Positions 7,909 through 49,325 of a stretch of 64,000 nt of DNA are shown here, piece after piece. This DNA comes from Candidatus Thermoflexus tengchongensis (GTDB taxonomy: Bacteria > Chloroflexota > Anaerolineae > Thermoflexales > Thermoflexaceae), in contig JAEVEX010000037.1 in NCBI GenBank assembly GCA_016842085.1, positions 62,001 through 126,000 on the forward strand. The letters run 5' to 3'. A program made the translations under genes and the position numbers. Numbering within the stretch: position 1 is the stretch's first letter; the number at the start of each line of letters is the position of its first letter. The notes under the pieces are model-generated. The model did no database searches. It was not told the origin of the DNA and worked only from the letters and a program-made list of their open reading frames with translations.

Positions 7909-7942
7909 CAGGTTCGCGCCATGCGCGGCGCGCCATGGGAAT

Positions 7943-8110
7943 GCCACCTGCTCCCATCCCGACTATACGGTCGGCCCCGGACTTTCACCGGTGTCCTGCC
8001 TCGGCCCAGTGGGCCTCGGCTCGCGGGCTGAGGAGGTGAGGGAAACTCCCTCCATCACCGCCGGTCGGGAATTGGCCGCCCGAAGGCGACCTCACCCTGC
8101 CCCGCAGGTC
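7943..8110 (-). promoter_or_regulatory. FMN riboswitch (RFN element)
   Basis: Read on the minus strand, the conserved blocks of the RFN element are all present in order: GGGGCAGGGTGA, AATTCCCGACCGGCGGTGAT, AGCCCGCGAGCC, CCGGTGAAAGTCCGGGGCCGAC, then GTATAGTCGGGATGGGAG. The closing P1 stem pairs ACCTGC at 8104-8109 with GCAGGT at the 3' end. This aptamer binds flavin mononucleotide and usually turns genes off when FMN is abundant. It precedes the ribX-ribY-ATPase operon and is followed by terminators, so control is by transcription termination. Confidence 0.95.
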
Positions 8111-8191
8111 GTGGTGATTCAGTTGTATGGCGCAGCGGATCCCTGGCTTCCTGGGCAGCGGGGCCAGAAGATCGCTGCGAGTCACTGCTTC

Positions 8192-41190: not shown

Positions 41191-41340
41191 TTAGCGAGCC
41201 TAAGAGGTTATATTGGCCGGAAGGAAGGCCCAAAGCCTGGCGCGGGCTTTTCGGGGTGCGGCTTCGGCGGGGCGGTCTCGCTAACCCGCGCTTTCACCGG
41301 ATAGCGCCTTCGGCGCTGCAGGTGAAGCGCAGATCGTTAG
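41191..41340 (+). repeat. 150-bp repeat A with attC-like site
   Basis: Direct repeat of 43505-43654 with the same length and six mismatches seen. Its 3' 60 nt fold like an integron attC site: CTAAC (41281-41285) pairs with GTTAG (41336-41340); an unpaired spacer follows; GCGCTTTCACC (41288-41298) pairs with GGTGAAGCGC (41321-41330) leaving one extrahelical T; GCGCC/GGCGC (41304-41308, 41312-41316) makes the tip. The octamer ATCGTTAG flanks the repeat on both sides (41187-41194, 41333-41340), as if it were itself an ORF-less unit. Confidence 0.75.
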
Positions 41341-41413: not shown

Positions 41414-42559
41414 ATGATTGTTCGAACAATAAATCCAGTCCAAATTTTAGAAGCCCACCAGCATGGTATTTGGACGCTTTGTTTATCTGCTGATCACCAT
41501 CTGATTTCCGGAGGAGGGGATGGGCTGCTTAAATTATGGAAATTTGACGTTCAAACCGAGAAGCTCGTTTTGCTCTCATCAGCATCAACACCCCATACCG
41601 GAATACTCGTCGTTCAAAAGACGAAATACGGGAAATTGGTTTCAGTCGGTCATCACGGGGGGATTTGTGTTTGGAACATCGAGCATGAAAAAGGACTGCT
41701 AAGGTTACACCAAAATTTAGGCATGGAGACTGAATATTGGGAGTACAATGATCGAATTTTGGAAACTCAGACTGGTCACTTGATTACCTGGATATATCTC
41801 GGAGCACTTCCTCCTATCGTATGGGAATGGTCGAGTGAGGAAGGTTCTTACCGACTCAAACAAGAACTACCCATGAATCACGTTTCTGTTCTCGTAGAAG
41901 ACCTCTATGGTAATCTCTTCTCTGGAGATCGTGATGGGAAAATCACATGGTGGTGGAAAGACATTACCATGCAATTCTGGACTGCGGGTCAGACCTTACA
42001 AGCTCACAAAGGCGCCGTCCGTGCTATGACCTGGACAAGGGAAGGATATCTGCTTTCGGGTGGCGATGACTGCCTTATTAAATACTGGCAACCAAACATG
42101 GATTTTAAATCGCTTGTTTTGATGGATATCCTGGAGGGCCATTCGAGTCCAATTTTCCATATCATGGAAACAAAAGCGGGCGAAATCGTTTCCAACGATC
42201 ATGGAGTTCGTATTCTTGCTTTCCGATACCGACGTAAGCCCGAATTTCGGGTATGGCGTAAAAAACCGGAGGGCATTCGGTTTGTCCAGAATCAGATGGG
42301 CTTTGTACGAGGATATCTGCCCCCCGACCTTCTGATTATAGATGAGATGGAAGGGAGTCTAACTTTATGGAAGCGCCAGCAAGAAAACTATGTACGGTAT
42401 GCCATAATGAAAAATGGCCACCGGGATCTTATAGTTTGTTTTGAGGTTTTGTCAGACGGGTATTTAGCCACCGGGGGGCTGGATGGACGGCTGGTTCTTT
42501 GGGATATTCGCTCTTTCTTAGCGAATGAAATAAATGAGGTGCAGCATGAATCGTATTAA
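41414..42559 (+). CDS. WD40-repeat beta-propeller protein in cassette
   Basis: 381 aa; ATG at 41414, ribosome site weak (GAAAGAAAG). Six or seven WD-like blades: HQHGIWTLCLSADHHLISGGGDGLLKLWKF, GKLVSVGHHGGICVWNI, GNLFSGDRDGKITWWWKD, AHKGAVRAMTWTREGYLLSGGDDCLIKYW, GHSSPIFHIME, and finally LSDGYLATGGLDGRLVLWDI. No signal peptide, so cytoplasmic. Such propellers mediate protein contacts. Composition differs strongly from the rest of the window, indicating horizontal origin. It overlaps the next gene by 14 bp, so the two products are probably made together. Confidence 0.85.
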   Translation: MIVRTINPVQILEAHQHGIWTLCLSADHHLISGGGDGLLKLWKFDVQTEKLVLLSSASTPHTGILVVQKTKYGKLVSVGHHGGICVWNIEHEKGLLRLHQNLGMETEYWEYNDRILETQTGHLITWIYLGALPPIVWEWSSEEGSYRLKQELPMNHVSVLVEDLYGNLFSGDRDGKITWWWKDITMQFWTAGQTLQAHKGAVRAMTWTREGYLLSGGDDCLIKYWQPNMDFKSLVLMDILEGHSSPIFHIMETKAGEIVSNDHGVRILAFRYRRKPEFRVWRKKPEGIRFVQNQMGFVRGYLPPDLLIIDEMEGSLTLWKRQQENYVRYAIMKNGHRDLIVCFEVLSDGYLATGGLDGRLVLWDIRSFLANEINEVQHESY

Positions 42560-43373
42560 CCGTCGTGATTTTCTCAAGTGGGCAGGAGTAGCCACGGGTG
42601 GCCTGGCGATTTCTTCTGTTCCCGGGCTCCGTTCGTCAAACCTCTTGGGAGCGACGGAGGAGCCTGAGTTTAAGTTTCTGGTTACCCCTGAAGGAGTCGT
42701 GGAAGTTCTTACAAAAACAGGACTCAGTTTAGGGACATTTTCGCTGGATGCACTGTCGAAACCGAAGGTGCCCATTAGCTTACTGGATGCAGGCAAGGAG
42801 AATGTGAATAGAACGTCTGCCGATATTTCCCGTCTTGTGCTTGGGCTGCCTGAGCCATTGATTCCACTTGCCCTGCATCCGTTGACTGCTTTTCAATCCT
42901 TGGAGTCGGGTTACCATTTAGACATCCTCGTTATTCCGAACACCAAGCTCGGACAAACTATCACAGAAGTCGCCCCTAACCGGGTGGAACCTGATTGGGA
43001 TTTCAAGACCCGCATTGGTCCCTATTTCATCCGTGTTAGCATCGAGAAACACTTCCTGGGCAGTTGTATCCGGCGTGATGTTTGGCATGCGGGTGCCTTG
43101 GTCCGAGATGTTCCGTCAAACACCATGCTTTTTGATTTACATATTGCTTCTTGGTGGGAGGGATGGCGCCCTTGTTTTGCTGTCTATGAAAGCAAGACGC
43201 GCTTCTGTTGGAATACATGCCAGTATCCAACATGGGATGCAATTGTGGCTATTGTCTATGCCGCAATTGCAGCGGGAATTGTCTGGTGGTTGGCTTGGCC
43301 TGTAGCTGGTGCCATCGCAACTGGAGCGGTGGGAGCGCTCACTGTGATTCCGGGTGTGCCACCTCCTCCGTAA
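42546..43373 (+). CDS. Tat-exported protein of unknown function in cassette
   Basis: 275 aa from the ATG at 42546 (GAGGTGCAGC upstream), inside the end of the WD40 gene. The N terminus has a twin-arginine signal, NRRDFLKWAGVATGG, then a hydrophobic stretch, so it is exported folded. The middle (about 40-220) is unrecognised, with several Cys (SCIRRD; RPCF; RFCWNTCQYP). The C terminus is a hydrophobic Ala/Gly/Val/Ile-rich segment (IVAIVYAAIAAGIVWWLAW, about 232-265) ending in IPGVPPPP, either a membrane anchor or a helix-hairpin. Function unknown; coupling suggests it acts with the WD40 protein. Confidence 0.8.
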   Translation: MNRINRRDFLKWAGVATGGLAISSVPGLRSSNLLGATEEPEFKFLVTPEGVVEVLTKTGLSLGTFSLDALSKPKVPISLLDAGKENVNRTSADISRLVLGLPEPLIPLALHPLTAFQSLESGYHLDILVIPNTKLGQTITEVAPNRVEPDWDFKTRIGPYFIRVSIEKHFLGSCIRRDVWHAGALVRDVPSNTMLFDLHIASWWEGWRPCFAVYESKTRFCWNTCQYPTWDAIVAIVYAAIAAGIVWWLAWPVAGAIATGAVGALTVIPGVPPPP

Positions 43374-43504: not shown

Positions 43505-43654
43505 TTAGCGAGCCCAAGAGGTTATATTGGCCGGAAGAAAGGTCCGAGGCCTGGCGCGGGCTTTTCGGGATGCGGCTTCGGCGGGGCGGTCTCGCTAACC
43601 CGCGCTTTCACCGGATAGCGCCTTCGGCGCTGCAGGTGAAGCGCAGATCGTTAG
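43505..43654 (+). repeat. 150-bp repeat B with attC-like site
   Basis: Partner of 41191-41340, offset exactly 2314 bp. The attC-like core is 43594-43655, where GCTAAC pairs with GTTAGC (6 bp) and the inner stem and extrahelical T are identical to repeat A. It lies 131 bp after the Tat-protein stop codon, as an attC site should in a cassette. Upstream it contains TTAGCGAG (43505-43512) that can pair with CTCGCTAA (43591-43598), an alternative fold. Confidence 0.75.
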
Positions 43655-43989: not shown

Positions 43990-44018
43990 TTGACAAGTTT
44001 CTGGAAGTCGCTTATGAT
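43990..44018 (+). promoter_or_regulatory. Promoter of the arginine operon leader
   Basis: Perfect -35 TTGACA (43990-43995), 17-bp spacer, -10 TATGAT (44013-44018). Predicted start near 44025. Confidence 0.85.
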
Positions 44019-44024
44019 TGATCC

Positions 44025-44207
44025 CAAACCATGGGGGATCAGGTGAGGATGTTGAACGGTATCGCCCGCTTCCCACGTATCCGTCGTCCAGAGGCCCTGC
44101 CGGGCATCGGGTCCGGCGCGGGGAGGCGGGTGATTGACCGTTAATGCCTGACGGTCACGCGGTGAGTTCCAACCCCCCGGGCTCCGATGCCCGGGGGGTT
44201 TTGTTTT
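44025..44207 (+). promoter_or_regulatory. Structured leader with attenuator upstream of argC
   Basis: About 183 nt from the predicted start to the end of an intrinsic terminator. A long rod is possible: AACGGT (44054-44059) with ACCGTT (44137-44142), CGCCCGC with GCGGGTG, and TCCC with GGGGA, enclosing a GGCCC-to-GGGTC hairpin. TGACCGT (44133-44139) can instead pair with ACGGTCA (44151-44157), which would break the rod base. The apical CCGGGCATCGG (44100-44110) is perfectly complementary to CCGATGCCCGG (44184-44194) inside the terminator, an obvious antiterminator pairing. I recognise no T-box or known riboswitch consensus. Confidence 0.65.
44173..44207 (+). terminator. Intrinsic terminator in the arg leader
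   Basis: Perfect 10-bp stem CCCCCCGGGC/GCCCGGGGGG (44173-44182, 44189-44198), 6-nt loop, tail TTTTGTTTT. It stands 250 bp before argC. Confidence 0.9.
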
Positions 44208-44340
44208 CATGAAGCTTTGCGCCATAGGGCCTCGAAGGGGGGGGTGGTGCCGCTCCCGGGAACCCATCCGCGGCGATGTCCGATTCAGGACTGCGGAAGC
44301 GGCCAGGGGCCCATGCACGCCACAAGGCGAAAAGCCAGAG

Positions 44341-44376
44341 TGGCGTGGGGCAACTGCTCGCAGTTGCCCCACGCCA
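44341..44376. repeat. 16-bp perfect hairpin in the argC leader; GGGCAAC family
   Basis: TGGCGTGGGGCAACTG (44341-44356) pairs with its complement (44361-44376), 4-nt loop CTCG. The core GGGCAACTG...GTTGCCC recurs as a hairpin at 56308-56335. No U tract. Confidence 0.7.
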
Positions 44377-44458
44377 AAAGGAGAATGGTGCAGGCCTGGC
44401 GGACCGCGTCACATCGGCAAGGGCGTAAGTCCTGCTCGTTTTCTCTGGAGGGATGGCG

Positions 44459-45472
44459 ATGATTCGCGTGGGGATCTATGGAGTGAGTGGATACGCCGGG
44501 TTTGAGGTCTTCCGGCTGTTACGGCGGCATCCGGCGGTGGAGATCGTCTTCGCGGCTTCCGAGAGCGGGGCAGGGGGCTCCCTGGCCCAGCTGTTCCCCG
44601 TGACCGAGGATTTCCCGATCGTGGGCTTTGCTGAGGCTCCGCTGGATCAGGTGGATGTGGTGTTCCTGGCGCTGCCCCACGGCGTCTCCGCCCCTCTCGC
44701 CCGCCGGGCCCTCGCCGCAGGGATTCGTGTGATTGACCTCTCCGCGGACTTCCGGCTGAAGGATCCGGTGATCTATGCCCGCTGGTATAAGGAGGAGCAT
44801 CAGGCTCCGGATCTCCTGGGGGAGGCCGTTTACGGCCTGACGGAGTGGAACCGTCCGGCGATTCGCTCCGCTCGTTTGATCGCCAACCCCGGCTGCTACC
44901 CTACGGCCACCCTGCTGGCCCTGCTCCCGCTCGCCCGGATGAGCGCGATCGGCCCGGGCCCGATCATCGTGGATGCGAAATCGGGGGTCTCGGGGGCAGG
45001 GCGTAAACCTTCCCTGACGACGCATTTCGTGGAAGTGGACGAGAATCTTTCCCCCTACAACATCGGCCGGGCTCACCGGCACCTGCCGGAGATCGAGCAG
45101 ATGCTTCACGCCTTCAACGGCGCCCTGGGCCCGCTGGTGTTCTCCCCCCAATTGCTTCCGGTGGCCCGGGGGATCCTGGCTACGATTTATGTTCCCTTAG
45201 CCCCCGGATGGACCGCGGGAATGGTTCGGGATCTGCTGGTGGAGTCCTACGGCGGGGAGCCCTTTGTGAAGGTGCTGCCGCCAGGGGTCCTGGCGACGCT
45301 GCGCCACAGCGTGGGCACCAATCTCTGTGTGCTCTCCGTGACAGATGTGCCGGAGGCGGGCCTGGTTATTCTCACCGCTTCCATTGACAACCTGATCAAA
45401 GGCGCTGCCGGGCAGGCGGTGCAGAACCTCAATGTGATGTTCGGCCTGGAGGAGACGGCCGGATTGCAATGA
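44459..45472 (+). CDS. argC: N-acetyl-gamma-glutamyl-phosphate reductase
   Basis: About 337 aa. GGAGGG touches an ATG at 44453, so the ATG at 44459 has the better spacing and is my choice. It reduces N-acetylglutamyl phosphate to the semialdehyde, step 3 of arginine synthesis. NAD(P) motif VGIYGVSGYAGFEVF; active-site Cys in NPGCYPTAT; the family segment VDAKSGVSGAGRKPS; later LPEIEQML. First gene of argC-argB-argD-argA-argG; expression is probably set by the attenuator upstream. Deinococcus/Thermus-type LysY is a relative, but no lysW-like gene is nearby. Confidence 0.95.
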   Translation: MIRVGIYGVSGYAGFEVFRLLRRHPAVEIVFAASESGAGGSLAQLFPVTEDFPIVGFAEAPLDQVDVVFLALPHGVSAPLARRALAAGIRVIDLSADFRLKDPVIYARWYKEEHQAPDLLGEAVYGLTEWNRPAIRSARLIANPGCYPTATLLALLPLARMSAIGPGPIIVDAKSGVSGAGRKPSLTTHFVEVDENLSPYNIGRAHRHLPEIEQMLHAFNGALGPLVFSPQLLPVARGILATIYVPLAPGWTAGMVRDLLVESYGGEPFVKVLPPGVLATLRHSVGTNLCVLSVTDVPEAGLVILTASIDNLIKGAAGQAVQNLNVMFGLEETAGLQ

Positions 45473-45519: not shown

Positions 45520-46248
45520 ATGCGGGTGATCAAGATCGGAGGCCATGAGCTGGATCAACCGGCGTTCCTGGAGGGTTTCATCGCTGCTCTGAAGGAGCTC
45601 TCGCCGCCGCCCATCCTGGTCCATGGCGGCGGGAAGGCGGTCAGCGCATGGCAGCAGCGAATCGGCCTCACCCCCCGGTATGTCGACGGATTGCGGGTGA
45701 CGGATGATGAAACCCTGGAGCTGGCCGTGATGACGCTGGCCGGGCTGACCAACAAAACCCTGGTGGCGGCCCTCGCGCGGGCGGGTCTGCCGGCTCTGGG
45801 GCTGTGCGGGGTCGATCTGGGCCTGGTGCGCGTGCGCCCGGTGCCCCATCTGGGATGGGTCGGGATGCCGGTAGCGGTGGATGCGGGGCGCCTCCGGCGC
45901 TGGATCGCGGAGGGGCTCCTCCCGGTGATCGCTCCGATCGGGCTGGGGCCGGAAGGGCTCTATAACGTGAACGCCGATCAGATGGCCGCAGCGGTCGCCG
46001 CAGCGCTTCCCGCCGATGAGCTCGTTCTCCTCACCGATGTGCCGGGGGTTCGGGTAGGCGACTCGATACGGTCTTTGCTCTATGCCGGGGAGGTCGAGGC
46101 CCTCATTGCCGCGGGAGTCATCCGCGACGGCATGATCCCCAAAGTCCGCTCTGCGCTGGAGGCCCTGGCAGCCGGGGTGCGTCGCGCGCGGATCACCAAC
46201 CTGGCGGGCCTTCGAGAGGGAGGCACCGAGATCCTGCAGGAGGGATAA
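45520..46248 (+). CDS. argB: Acetylglutamate kinase
   Basis: 242 aa. It phosphorylates N-acetylglutamate, step 2 of arginine synthesis. Amino-acid-kinase fold: VIKIGGHELD at the start, LVHGGGKAVSAWQQR, GLRVTDDETLEL, the NVNADQMAAAVAAAL segment, LLTDVPGV, and GGMIPK-like RDGMIPKVRSALEAL. The short N terminus (no Arg-sensing helix) implies an arginine-insensitive enzyme, typical where a short acetylglutamate synthase is the control point. argD follows after 4 bp. LysZ-type activity on a LysW carrier is an alternative with no supporting neighbour. Confidence 0.92.
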   Translation: MRVIKIGGHELDQPAFLEGFIAALKELSPPPILVHGGGKAVSAWQQRIGLTPRYVDGLRVTDDETLELAVMTLAGLTNKTLVAALARAGLPALGLCGVDLGLVRVRPVPHLGWVGMPVAVDAGRLRRWIAEGLLPVIAPIGLGPEGLYNVNADQMAAAVAAALPADELVLLTDVPGVRVGDSIRSLLYAGEVEALIAAGVIRDGMIPKVRSALEALAAGVRRARITNLAGLREGGTEILQEG

Positions 46249-46252
46249 GCGC

Positions 46253-47443
46253 ATGGATGCAGAGGCGCTGGTGGCGCTTGCGGAACGGGTGCTGGCGCCG
46301 ACCTATCGGCGGCCGCCCATCGTCTTCACCCACGGCGAGGGTGTGTATGTCTACGACGTGGCTGGCCGGCGGTATCTGGATTTCGTGGCCGGGATCGCGG
46401 TGTGCGCGCTGGGTCACGCAGATCCCGGGGTGGGGCAGGTGATGGCCGAACAGGCCCGACGGCTGGTCCATCTCAGCAATCTCTACCACACCGAGCCCCA
46501 TCTGCGCCTGGCGGAGGCCCTGGTCGCTCACAGCTTTGCCGACCGGGTCTTCTTCTGCAACTCCGGCACCGAAGCCGTAGAAGCGGCTCTCAAGTTTGCC
46601 CGGAAGTTCGCTCGAACGCATTTCGATGACCGCAAGATCGGTTTTGTTGCCTTCACCCACAGCTTCCACGGCCGCACGATGGGCGCCCTCTCGGTCACCG
46701 AGAAGCCTGCCTACCGCGAACCCTTCGCCCCTCTGATCCCCGGCGTGACCTTTATCCCCTTTAACGATGTGGAGGCGGCACAGACGGCGATCACGTCAGA
46801 AACCTGCGCCGTGATCGTGGAGCCGATCCAGGGGGAAGGGGGCGTGCATATCGCCTCGCCGGAGTTCCTGCGGGCCTTGCGGGCCCGGTGCGATGAAACC
46901 GGAGCGCTGCTGATTTTCGATGAAGTGCAGTGCGGTCTGGGGCGCACGGGGACGCTGTGGGCCTATGAGGCGTATGGAGTGGAGCCGGATTTGCTGACGG
47001 TGGCCAAGCCCCTGGCGAACGGTCTGCCCATCGGTGCTGTGCTGATGAAGGAAAAGGTAGCGGCTGTCCTGCAGCCGGGGGACCACGGCAGCACCTTCGC
47101 CGGCGGGCCGCTGGTGAGCGCGGTGGCCCTTCATGTCTTCGAGCGCCTGCGCGATCCGGCTTTCCTGGCCCACGTGCGAGCGGTCGGCGCCTATCTGATG
47201 GAACGCCTGCATGCGGCGGAGCTCCCGGGCGTGAAGGAAATCCGGGGCCGGGGCTTGATCGTGGGGATCGAGATCGAAGGAGACGCGCGGGCCGTCACGA
47301 TGGCTGCGCTGGAGCGGGGGTTGCTCCTCACGACGGCCGGCGACCATGTCGTGCGGATGGTTCCTCCGCTGATCGTCGAGCGATCCCACATCGATGAGGC
47401 CGTCGCGGTCCTCCAGGAGGCGATGGCGGCTTGCAGGGGATAG
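46253..47443 (+). CDS. argD: Acetylornithine aminotransferase
   Basis: 396 aa; its ribosome site (AGGAGGG) overlaps the argB end. Class III PLP aminotransferase converting N-acetylglutamate semialdehyde to N-acetylornithine. CNSGTEAVEAALKFARK binds the cofactor phosphate, IFDEVQCGLGRTG holds the Asp, and the Schiff-base Lys is in LTVAKPLANGLPIGAV. THSFHGRTMGALSVT is typical of ArgD. Order and spacing fit the arg operon. Confidence 0.95.
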   Translation: MDAEALVALAERVLAPTYRRPPIVFTHGEGVYVYDVAGRRYLDFVAGIAVCALGHADPGVGQVMAEQARRLVHLSNLYHTEPHLRLAEALVAHSFADRVFFCNSGTEAVEAALKFARKFARTHFDDRKIGFVAFTHSFHGRTMGALSVTEKPAYREPFAPLIPGVTFIPFNDVEAAQTAITSETCAVIVEPIQGEGGVHIASPEFLRALRARCDETGALLIFDEVQCGLGRTGTLWAYEAYGVEPDLLTVAKPLANGLPIGAVLMKEKVAAVLQPGDHGSTFAGGPLVSAVALHVFERLRDPAFLAHVRAVGAYLMERLHAAELPGVKEIRGRGLIVGIEIEGDARAVTMAALERGLLLTTAGDHVVRMVPPLIVERSHIDEAVAVLQEAMAACRG

Positions 47444-47504: not shown

Positions 47505-47595
47505 CGGGGGGAAGCCGGTGATGTTCATAACGCGGATGCGCTTTCTGAACCTGTTCCACCTGCAAAGCGAGAGCCGGGAAAGGAGGGGAAACCCG

Positions 47596-48051
47596 ATGCG
47601 AATCCGGCCTGCCCATCCGGAAGATATCCCGATCCTCTACGCGCTGGTGAACGCTTACGCCCAGCGGGGATGGCTTCTCCCACGGAGCGCGGAGGAGATC
47701 GCGGCCACGCTCCCGGACTGGGTGGTGGCGGAAGCGGGGGGCCGGATCGTGGGCTGCGGTTCGCTGGTGTGGATGTCCCCCACCCTGGTGGAGATCCGTT
47801 CTCTGGCCGTGGATGAAGCCTATCAGGGCAATGGGGTGGGGGGAGCCCTTGTGCGGGCGCTGGTGGAGCGGGCGCGATCCGCCGGCGCGCACACCGTGTT
47901 CGCCCTCACCCGGGCGGTTCCCTTCTTCGAGCGTCTCGGCTTCGCCGTCGCCGAGCGCGACCGCTTCCCGGAGAAGGTGTGGCGGGATTGCATGCGTTGT
48001 CCACTCCGGGAACGCTGCGATGAGGTCGCGGTGATGCTTCAGGTGGAGTGA
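47596..48051 (+). CDS. argA: Short N-acetylglutamate synthase (GNAT family)
   Basis: 151 aa from the ATG at 47596 behind AAAGGAGGGG; the longer frame from 47518 is rejected. GNAT fold: MRIRPAHPEDIPILYALVNAYA, acetyl-CoA loop VDEAYQGNGVGGALVRALVERA, and the hallmark tail FPEKVWRDCMRCPLRERCDEVAVML with four Cys, shared by the stand-alone short ArgA group. It acetylates glutamate, the first step of arginine synthesis. Presence of argA and absence of argJ here suggest the linear route. Located between argD and argG, 41 bp before argG. Confidence 0.88.
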   Translation: MRIRPAHPEDIPILYALVNAYAQRGWLLPRSAEEIAATLPDWVVAEAGGRIVGCGSLVWMSPTLVEIRSLAVDEAYQGNGVGGALVRALVERARSAGAHTVFALTRAVPFFERLGFAVAERDRFPEKVWRDCMRCPLRERCDEVAVMLQVE

Positions 48052-48092: not shown

Positions 48093-49325
48093 ATGGTGCG
48101 CAAGGTGGTTCTGGCGTATTCCGGCGGTCTGGACACCTCCACCATTATCCCGTGGTTGCGGGAGACCTATGGGTGCGAGGTGATCGCCTTCTGTGCGGAT
48201 ATCGGCCAGGGGGCGGAGGAAATGAAAGGGGTCGAGGAGCGGGCCTATGCCGGTGGGGCTTCGAAAGTGATCATCCGTGACCTGCGGGAGGAGTTCCTGC
48301 GGGATTACGTGCTGCCCACTGTGCAGGCTGGCGCGGTCTACGAGGGCAAATATCTGCTGGGAACCGCGATGGCGCGTCCCCTGATCGCCAAGCACCAGGT
48401 GGAGATCGCCCTCCAGGAAGGGGCCGATGCGGTGGCCCATGGGGCGACCGGGAAGGGGAACGACCAGGTTCGCTTCGAGCTGGCCTATCAGGCCCTGGCG
48501 CCCCATCTGCGGGTGATCGCCCCGTGGCGGGAGTGGTCGATCACCTCCCGCCGCGAGGCTTACGAATACGCCCGGGCTCACGGCGTCCCCATCGAATGGA
48601 GCAGCAGTCGCTACAGCCGTGATCGCAACATCTGGCATGTCTCCCATGAGGGCGGACCGCTGGAGGATCCCGATTGGGAGCCTGAGGACGATGTCTATCT
48701 GTGGACCGTGGATCCTGCGAAGGCGCCGGAGGTTCCAGAGACCATCACCCTGGCGTTCGAGCAGGGGGTCCCCGTCGCGCTGAACGGCCAGTCGATGGGG
48801 CTGGTTCCCCTGATGGAAGCCCTCAATGCGCTGGGCGCGAAGCACGGCATCGGGCGGGTGGATCTGGTGGAGAACCGGCTGGTGGGGATGAAGTCCCGTG
48901 GGGTCTACGAGACGCCAGGGGGAACCATCCTGGTGGAAGCGCTGCGGGCGCTGGAGACGCTGTGTCTGGATCGCGAGACCATGCATTTCAAGCAGGGCCT
49001 GGCGCTGCGGTATGCGGAGCTGGTCTATTACGGCTGGTGGTTCAGCCCCCTGCGGGAGGCGATGGATGCCTTCGTGAGGACGGTCATGCGCCATGTCACC
49101 GGAGAGGTGCGGCTCAAGCTGTATAAGGGGAACGTCTTCGTGGTAGGCCGGCGCTCGCCTTATAGCCTTTATCGGGAGGATATCGTCTCTTTCGATACCG
49201 TGGGAGCTTACGATCACAAAGATGCAGCCGGCTTCATCCGGCTGTTCGGGCTGCCCCTGAAGGTCCACGGCCTGATCAGCCGGGGCCTGCGCGGGGAACC
49301 CCGTGCCCCCGAGGAACGAGATTAA
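48093..49325 (+). CDS. argG: Argininosuccinate synthase
   Basis: 410 aa; ATG with AGGAGGTGAAAG upstream. It joins citrulline and aspartate with ATP. PP-loop VLAYSGGLDTSTIIPWL at the N terminus, HGATGKGNDQVRFEL, EYARAHGVPI and the substrate segment LVENRLVGMKSRGVYETPGG. Length is normal. Last gene of the arg operon in the window; argH, argF and carbamoyl-phosphate genes are elsewhere. Confidence 0.97.
   Translation: MVRKVVLAYSGGLDTSTIIPWLRETYGCEVIAFCADIGQGAEEMKGVEERAYAGGASKVIIRDLREEFLRDYVLPTVQAGAVYEGKYLLGTAMARPLIAKHQVEIALQEGADAVAHGATGKGNDQVRFELAYQALAPHLRVIAPWREWSITSRREAYEYARAHGVPIEWSSSRYSRDRNIWHVSHEGGPLEDPDWEPEDDVYLWTVDPAKAPEVPETITLAFEQGVPVALNGQSMGLVPLMEALNALGAKHGIGRVDLVENRLVGMKSRGVYETPGGTILVEALRALETLCLDRETMHFKQGLALRYAELVYYGWWFSPLREAMDAFVRTVMRHVTGEVRLKLYKGNVFVVGRRSPYSLYREDIVSFDTVGAYDHKDAAGFIRLFGLPLKVHGLISRGLRGEPRAPEERD

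What the first reader, a model, noticed from the sequence alone, without database searches (positions are those of the whole stretch)
43990..44458. Candidate new attenuator or riboswitch controlling arginine biosynthesis
A consensus promoter (TTGACA-17-TATGAT) starts a roughly 183-nt leader that ends in a very strong intrinsic terminator 250 bp before argC. The leader can fold into a long rod whose base (AACGGT/ACCGTT) competes with TGACCGT/ACGGTCA. Its apical CCGGGCATCGG (44100-44110) is an 11-nt perfect complement of CCGATGCCCGG (44184-44194) in the terminator. Mutually exclusive pairings of this kind are the signature of transcription attenuation. I see no T-box sequence, no leader peptide with Arg codons and no known aptamer consensus.
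Basis: partly seen in the sequence, partly recalled or inferred. Interest (0 to 1): 0.82.

Follow-up and report, generated by a model that had tools for sequence, protein, structure and literature searches.

The report
Arginine-sensing ribosome-stalling attenuator before argC
The stretch before the arginine-biosynthesis genes encodes a tiny arginine-rich peptide whose slow translation when arginine is short most likely stops a transcription terminator from forming, a trp-operon-like switch for arginine that recurs widely in this group of bacteria.

Summary
The promoter, the strong terminator 252 bp before argC and the 11-nt complement are real. Modelled on nascent RNA, a ribosome waiting at the four invariant Arg codons yields the antiterminator (44100-44110 with 44184-44194) in 8 of 8; a ribosome further along (codons 16-27) yields the terminator in 8 of 8. 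This is classical ribosome-mediated attenuation, not a riboswitch. The leader sequence is confined to the genus, but the architecture (Arg-rich ORF, competing hairpins, terminator) recurs before argC across the class: terminators in 86 of 98 upstream regions, against 12 of 98 on the reverse strand and 0 of 23 before an argC paralogue. Own leader and terminator pair better than cross-family combinations (p 2e-6). ArgR is absent from 199 of 199 class genomes searched. One family outside the class shows the same layout. Nine full-text searches of an open-access library found no published arginine-operon attenuator of this kind. No expression data were available: the response to arginine is inferred.

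The parts
43990..44018 (+). sigma-70-type promoter, TTGACA-17-TATGAT; start of transcription expected near 44025
   Evidence: consensus scan, 11 of 12; both hexamers kept in 8 of 8 genus leaders
44041..44048 (+). Shine-Dalgarno-like AGGTGAGG before the leader ORF
   Evidence: sequence; purine-rich stretch in most of the 8 relatives, different in G003/G004
44049..44144 (+). leader ORF, 31 codons, MLNGIARFPRIRRPEALPGIGSGAGRRVIDR, 7 Arg
   Evidence: open with the same length and stop position in 8 of 8; ATG in 7 of 8, ACG followed by TTG in G002
44067..44087 (+). control codons: Arg at 44067-44069, 44076-44078, 44082-44084, 44085-44087 within RFPRIRR
   Evidence: RFPRIRR invariant in 8 of 8
44055..44142 (+). 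rod (1:2-type hairpin) that holds 44100-44110 when no ribosome is stalled
   Evidence: fold of the single sequence and consensus of 8, 3 pairs with two-sided changes over rod and terminator
44100..44110 (+). antiterminator strand CCGGGCATCGG (with 44111-44125 taking up the terminator 5' arm in the model)
   Evidence: 11-nt complement; fold of 44100-44200; pairing kept in 97.7% of 86 cells
44184..44194 (+). antiterminator partner CCGATGCCCGG in the terminator loop and 3' arm
44171..44207 (+). intrinsic terminator (stem 44171-44200) and T-rich tail
   Evidence: kept in 8 of 8 genus leaders
44453..45472 (+). argC, N-acetyl-gamma-glutamyl-phosphate reductase, first gene of the controlled operon
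   Evidence: TIGR01850, over cut-off
45520..46248 (+). argB, acetylglutamate kinase
   Evidence: TIGR00761, over cut-off
46253..47443 (+). argD-type transaminase
   Evidence: TIGR00707, over cut-off
47518..48051 (+). N-acetyltransferase, possibly the acetylglutamate synthase step (the role is inference)
   Evidence: NF005840, over cut-off
48093..49325 (+). argG, argininosuccinate synthase
   Evidence: TIGR00032 and NF001770, over cut-off

Best explanation
A ribosome-mediated transcription attenuator of the arg operon. RNA polymerase starts near 44025 and a ribosome starts the 31-codon leader ORF. When charged tRNA-Arg is plentiful the ribosome passes RFPRIRR, 44100-44110 is masked by the ribosome or taken back into the rod, the terminator folds and transcription stops about 250 bp before argC. 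When charged tRNA-Arg is scarce the ribosome waits at one of four Arg codons (44067-44087), which opens the rod and frees 44100-44125; this strand pairs with the terminator's loop and 3' arm (in the model also its 5' arm), and polymerase reads into argC-argB-argD-acetyltransferase-argG. Shown by sequence and computation: the ORF and its conservation, mutually exclusive pairings, dependence on stall position, recurrence across the class. Inferred: that the ORF is translated, that arginine supply is the signal, and that argC transcription responds.
For: ORF with RFPRIRR invariant in 8 of 8 readable genus leaders, directly upstream of argC in 8 of 8 (the ninth genome's argC is cut by a contig end). 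Stall modelling: antiterminator at Arg codons 7, 10, 12, 13 in 8 of 8 nascent transcripts, terminator at codons 16-27 in 8 of 8; 0 of 200 spacer shuffles reproduce this. Complement 11 nt, 1 of 1000 shuffles. Leader dS 0.15-0.36 against argC dS 0.63-0.90 between distant pairs among the 5 of 8 genomes compared, i.e. silent sites are held by RNA. Class: Arg-rich ATG ORFs 41 of 98 against 9 of 98 on the reverse strand, terminators 86 of 98 against 12 of 98, paralogue control 0 of 23 for both; matched against cross-family leader:terminator pairing p 2e-6; nascent P(terminator) median 0.38 at Arg stall against 0.87 at the stop codon, 78 leaders, p 2e-8. No ArgR in 199 of 199 class genomes.
Against: No expression, ribosome-profiling or termination data. 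No pair of the genus antiterminator has two-sided changes and G007 breaks two of its pairs. At equilibrium on full-length RNA G005 never leaves the terminator, and across the class only 8 of 75 leaders with a stable terminator drop to 0.3 or less at an Arg stall; the case rests on nascent-RNA folding. With a ribosome on the last few codons or the stop, the nascent genus model again favours the antiterminator, so termination with arginine present must depend on ribosome transit or release. Pairwise dN is not below dS for distant pairs, so selection on the peptide sequence itself is not shown. In G002 the ATG is ACG (TTG follows).
Confidence: 0.88

Rival explanations
1. A metabolite-binding riboswitch (arginine, ornithine or similar) with the rod as aptamer and the terminator as expression platform.
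For: Strongly folded, conserved leader and a mutually exclusive terminator.
Against: The conserved part is an ORF of constant length with invariant Arg codons. Across families the leader sequence changes completely while Arg codons and leader:terminator complementarity stay; an aptamer would keep its binding core. No Rfam match.
Confidence: 0.04
2. An arrest-peptide sensor, in which free arginine acts on the nascent leader peptide in the exit tunnel (as recalled for the fungal arginine attenuator peptide).
For: The genus peptide is well conserved beyond the Arg codons (LPGIGSGAG).
Against: Outside the genus the peptides share little but Arg runs and a PD..SG ending whose codons are the pairing strands; nothing suggests selection on the peptide itself.
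Confidence: 0.04
3. Translation of the leader acts through Rho or mRNA decay rather than this intrinsic terminator.
For: Such Arg-codon leaders exist, e.g. orf34-speF (PMC6386406, passages).
Against: A strong intrinsic terminator is conserved in 8 of 8 and found in 86 of 98 class regions.
Confidence: 0.02
4. An independent small RNA (for instance a 6S-like RNA) that happens to lie before argC.
For: Own promoter and terminator, rod-like fold, about 183 nt.
Against: 6S candidates lie elsewhere in 8 of 9 genus genomes (only 1 of 9 over the Rfam cut-off); the leader is next to argC in 8 of 8; Arg-rich ORF and terminator-antiterminator competition would be unexplained.
Confidence: 0.02

Closest known systems
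Ribosome-mediated amino-acid attenuators (trp, his, leu, thr, ilv, phe operon leaders)
   Same: Short ORF with control codons for the product amino acid, alternative hairpins, intrinsic terminator before the biosynthetic operon.
   Different: Arginine instead of the described amino acids; a Chloroflexota genus and class. PMC3766115 (passages) lists His, Leu, Thr, Trp in Rfam plus Ile/Val and Phe, and places them mainly in gamma-proteobacteria. In the genus the antiterminator takes the terminator loop and 3' arm, not only the 5' arm.
orf34-speF leader of Salmonella
   Same: Leader ORF with two consecutive Arg codons senses arginine by ribosome pausing (PMC6386406, passages).
   Different: Works through Rho, RNase G and RBS access on an ornithine decarboxylase operon, not through an intrinsic terminator on arginine biosynthesis.
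rbfL of Staphylococcus aureus
   Same: Leader peptide senses arginine limitation at Arg codons (PMC13009471, passages).
   Different: Acts on translation initiation of rbf, lowering expression when arginine is scarce; no attenuator.
ArgR/AhrC repressor and arginine T-box control
   Same: Control of arginine genes by arginine or tRNA-Arg.
   Different: ArgR C-terminal domain in 0 of 199 class genomes. T-boxes occur in the genus (6-7 matches in each of 9 genomes), but no listed match lies at argC.
Fungal arginine attenuator peptide
   Same: Upstream ORF linked to arginine (recalled, not looked up).
   Different: Senses free arginine through the nascent peptide and acts on translation (recalled); here the peptide sequence is not conserved across families.

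Membership tests
Ribosome-mediated transcription attenuator | short leader ORF with clustered codons for the operon's product amino acid | tested here: met
   7 Arg of 31 codons; RFPRIRR invariant in 8 of 8
Ribosome-mediated transcription attenuator | intrinsic terminator between leader ORF and first gene | tested here: met
   44171-44200; kept in 8 of 8
Ribosome-mediated transcription attenuator | antiterminator that excludes the terminator and depends on where the ribosome stands | tested here: met
   modelled only: 8 of 8 nascent, 7 of 8 at equilibrium; 0 of 200 shuffles
Ribosome-mediated transcription attenuator | ribosome at the stop codon allows termination | tested here: inconclusive
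   class median P(terminator) 0.87 at the stop; in the genus the nascent model favours the antiterminator near the stop
Ribosome-mediated transcription attenuator | leader is translated and read-through rises when the amino acid is scarce | not testable with these tools
   needs RNA and ribosome data
Riboswitch (metabolite aptamer) | match to a known aptamer family | tested here: not met
   no match at gathering score
Riboswitch (metabolite aptamer) | conserved aptamer core across distant homologues | tested here: not met
   genus leader model found in 8 of 199 class genomes, all of the genus
T-box | RF00230 match at argC | tested here: not met
   none in the window at gathering score; none of the listed genus matches lies at argC
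6S RNA | RF00013 match at this locus | tested here: not met

The most novel reading that the evidence does not exclude
An arginine-specific attenuator is the standard control of the arg operon in much of this class, and in part of at least one other class of the phylum, standing in for the missing ArgR. Its codons do double duty: Arg codons sense tRNA charge, and the following 'PD..SG' codons (CCRGAC / GTCYGG) are the switching RNA strands that pair with each other or with the terminator.
Probability: 0.7. Interest if true: 0.68.

Novelty: new member of a known kind. Interest (0 to 1): 0.62.

Why it matters
Ribosome-mediated attenuation has been described for few amino acids and mostly in proteobacteria. 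A class-wide arginine version in bacteria without ArgR would extend the kind to a new amino acid and phylum, explain how these organisms control arg genes, give an RNA family that can be annotated, and provide a natural series for studying how coding strands and antiterminator strands evolve together.

Tried and rejected
Known RNA families: none. 6S RNA: lies elsewhere. T-box: present in the genus, not at argC. ArgR: absent. TGACCGT/ACGGTCA competition: in 4 of 8 relatives only. dN/dS as evidence of selection on the peptide: not supportive (the script picked up the argC genes of only 5 of the 8 genomes). Covariation of the antiterminator within the genus: no change on both sides. Full-length equilibrium stall test across the class: mostly negative, 8 of 75; I then ran the nascent version, a change made after seeing the negative result, although the nascent form had already been used for the genus. 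The 78 class leaders were chosen out of 98 regions for Arg density next to a terminator, so their Arg content is not independent evidence; searches do not use that choice. A covariance model of the genus leader found nothing beyond the genus. At the level of families and with all three start codons the Arg-ORF test was weak: 19 of 30 families forward, 15 of 30 reverse. L043, a Lachnospiraceae record with one match to the 20-base pattern, was not examined and is taken as chance.

Full report
What is there. The window lies in an assembly of the Thermoflexus group: five relatives' contigs agree in length with records titled Thermoflexus (4) or Chloroflexota bacterium (1). A near-consensus promoter (43990-44018), a strong terminator (44171-44200) and argC (44453-45472, followed by argB, argD, an N-acetyltransferase and argG) stand in order. 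The leader folds into a rod (z -4.50 with the terminator, -2.99 without). No Rfam family matches.

The leader holds an ORF from ATG 44049 to TAA 44144: MLNGIARFPRIRRPEALPGIGSGAGRRVIDR, 7 Arg in 31. Blastn found the leader in 8 of 9 genus genomes, each time directly before argC; in the ninth, argC itself is cut by the contig end. In 8 of 8 the ORF has 31 codons, the same stop position and no internal indel, while indels occur before and after it. RFPRIRR is invariant; its Arg codons differ only synonymously (CGC/CGT). The later RR pair is lost in 3 of 8.

How it switches. 44100-44110 complements 44184-44194 over 11 nt, reached by 1 of 1000 shuffles. The helix is paired in 97.7% of 86 cells across 8 genomes against at most 54.7% when slid, though without two-sided changes. 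I folded each leader with a ribosome footprint (18 nt upstream to 14 nt downstream of the A-site codon) at every codon. On nascent transcripts, Arg codons 7, 10, 12 and 13 give the antiterminator in 8 of 8; codons 16-27 give the terminator in 8 of 8; no ribosome gives the terminator in 7 of 8 (G001 ambiguous). On full-length RNA at equilibrium 7 of 8 still switch at Arg 10; G005 does not. With 44088-44170 shuffled, 0 of 200 controls behave the same. Freed 44100-44200 folds as one antiterminator that takes up both terminator arms. A weakness: with a ribosome on the last few codons the nascent model again favours the antiterminator, so termination with arginine present must rest on ribosome transit or release.

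Beyond the genus. ArgC matches were found in 162 of 199 class genomes. I took 102 upstream regions outside the genus (22 loci, 80 fetched); 98 had at least 330 nt. ATG ORFs with at least 4 Arg in 8 residues lie in 41 of 98, on the reverse strand in 9 of 98, in shuffles 5.4 on average; terminators lie in 86 of 98 against 12 of 98. Upstream of the argC paralogue, in 23 genomes that hold both genes, both counts are 0 (24 were chosen and one was too short; 8 single-hit genomes were kept apart, and one of these, G090, had a terminator and an ORF with 4 Arg). Many leaders read ...RSPRSPRR..PD..SG-stop. The codons explain this: CCRGAC ('PD') and GTCYGG ('SG') can pair with each other, and GTCYGG with CCRGAC in the terminator. 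CCRGAC is in 34 of 77 terminator 5' arms plus loops (shuffled 2.0), GTCYGG in 53 of 77 leaders (shuffled 6.7), both in 30 of 77. Other families use other but matching strands, for example GTGTGTC with GACACAC and GAGGTCA with TGACCTC. Own leader:terminator duplexes average -16.3 kcal/mol against -13.5 for cross-family combinations (77 regions, p 2e-6; 28 families, p 6e-5); the family medians lie in the best 5% in 10 of 28 and are unremarkable in others such as f14, f29, f31, f36 and f38. Nascent P(terminator) over 78 leaders: median 0.38 at Arg stall, 0.87 at the stop codon (p 2e-8), and below shuffled spacers (p 5e-7). At equilibrium on full-length RNA only 8 of 75 drop to 0.3 or less.

Outside the class, I read the 22 loci of other classes among the 30 loci. 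Family f74 (6 of 6 loci) has leaders such as MKKQMLTNLFSPALRLRRPRTNEVRWACAVCAA, with a detected terminator in 4 of 6; GAGGTTCG implied by NEVR and CGAACCTC in three of these terminators can pair (my reading). Family f100 (2 of 2) has Arg-rich ORFs and no terminator detected by the scan. f59 (3), f79 (1) and f103 (1) showed nothing convincing, and f64 (9) only scattered Arg-containing ORFs without terminators. The element is therefore not phylum-wide.

Regulator context. The ArgR C-terminal domain is in 0 of 199 class genomes and in 8 of 14 control genomes. T-boxes occur in the genus, none listed at argC. In leader windows with at least 4 Arg in 8, CGT (0.38) and AGG (0.16) are commoner, and CGG (0.03) rarer, than in 22 argC genes (0.09, 0.03, 0.24); this fits stalling on slow codons but may also reflect RNA structure.

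Literature. Nine full-text searches of an open-access library listed no arginine-operon transcription attenuator in bacteria and no attenuator study in this class. PMC1262725 (passages) reports no conserved RNA structure before arginine operons in Actinobacteria. PMC3766115 (passages) and PMC9413887 (passages) treat other amino acids; PMC8632094 (passages) gives a cysteine-codon attenuator. PMC8129789 (passages), on Thermoflexus metabolism, has no mention of attenuation and says that de novo arginine synthesis did not appear possible for want of single genes, so the operon may serve only part of the pathway there. PMC2965389, PMC9239276 and PMC12880543 (term look-ups) add nothing on the question. 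Subscription papers were not searchable, so earlier description is not excluded.

Verdict. The leader works like a ribosome-mediated attenuator and meets every sequence-level feature of that kind that I could test except the stop-codon behaviour, which is inconclusive. New are the amino acid, the phylum and the breadth. The physiological response is inferred.

Noticed in passing
44340-44378: A near-perfect palindrome (GGGGCAACTGC-NN-GCAGTTGCCCC core) between terminator and argC; the core occurs at 63 places in this genome with up to 2 mismatches against 0 for the reversed pattern: a dispersed repeat, not part of the attenuator.
   Followed up: partly
41191-41340 and 43505-43654: A 150-nt direct repeat, 96% identical, flanking two genes (41414-42559 and 42534-43373) that match no NCBIfam family: perhaps a mobile or recently inserted segment.
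   Followed up: no
7942-8113 (minus strand): FMN riboswitch, 74.5 bits, above the Rfam gathering score.
   Followed up: no
G000:C57:90670-91680 and relatives: A second ArgC-like gene, 40-42% identical to argC, in 7 of 9 genus genomes, probably of a LysW-type pathway (recalled); it lacks the leader and terminator layout.
   Followed up: partly
G000:C15:44913-45105 and relatives (L021-L028): 6S RNA candidates in 8 of 9 genus genomes score mostly below the Rfam cut-off (1 of 9 above): divergent 6S RNAs that Rfam would miss.
   Followed up: no
L160-L164, L167 (family f74, another class): Arg-rich leaders before argC (..LRLRRPRTNEVRW..) with terminators whose CGAACCTC can pair with the leader: the same architecture outside the class.
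   Followed up: partly
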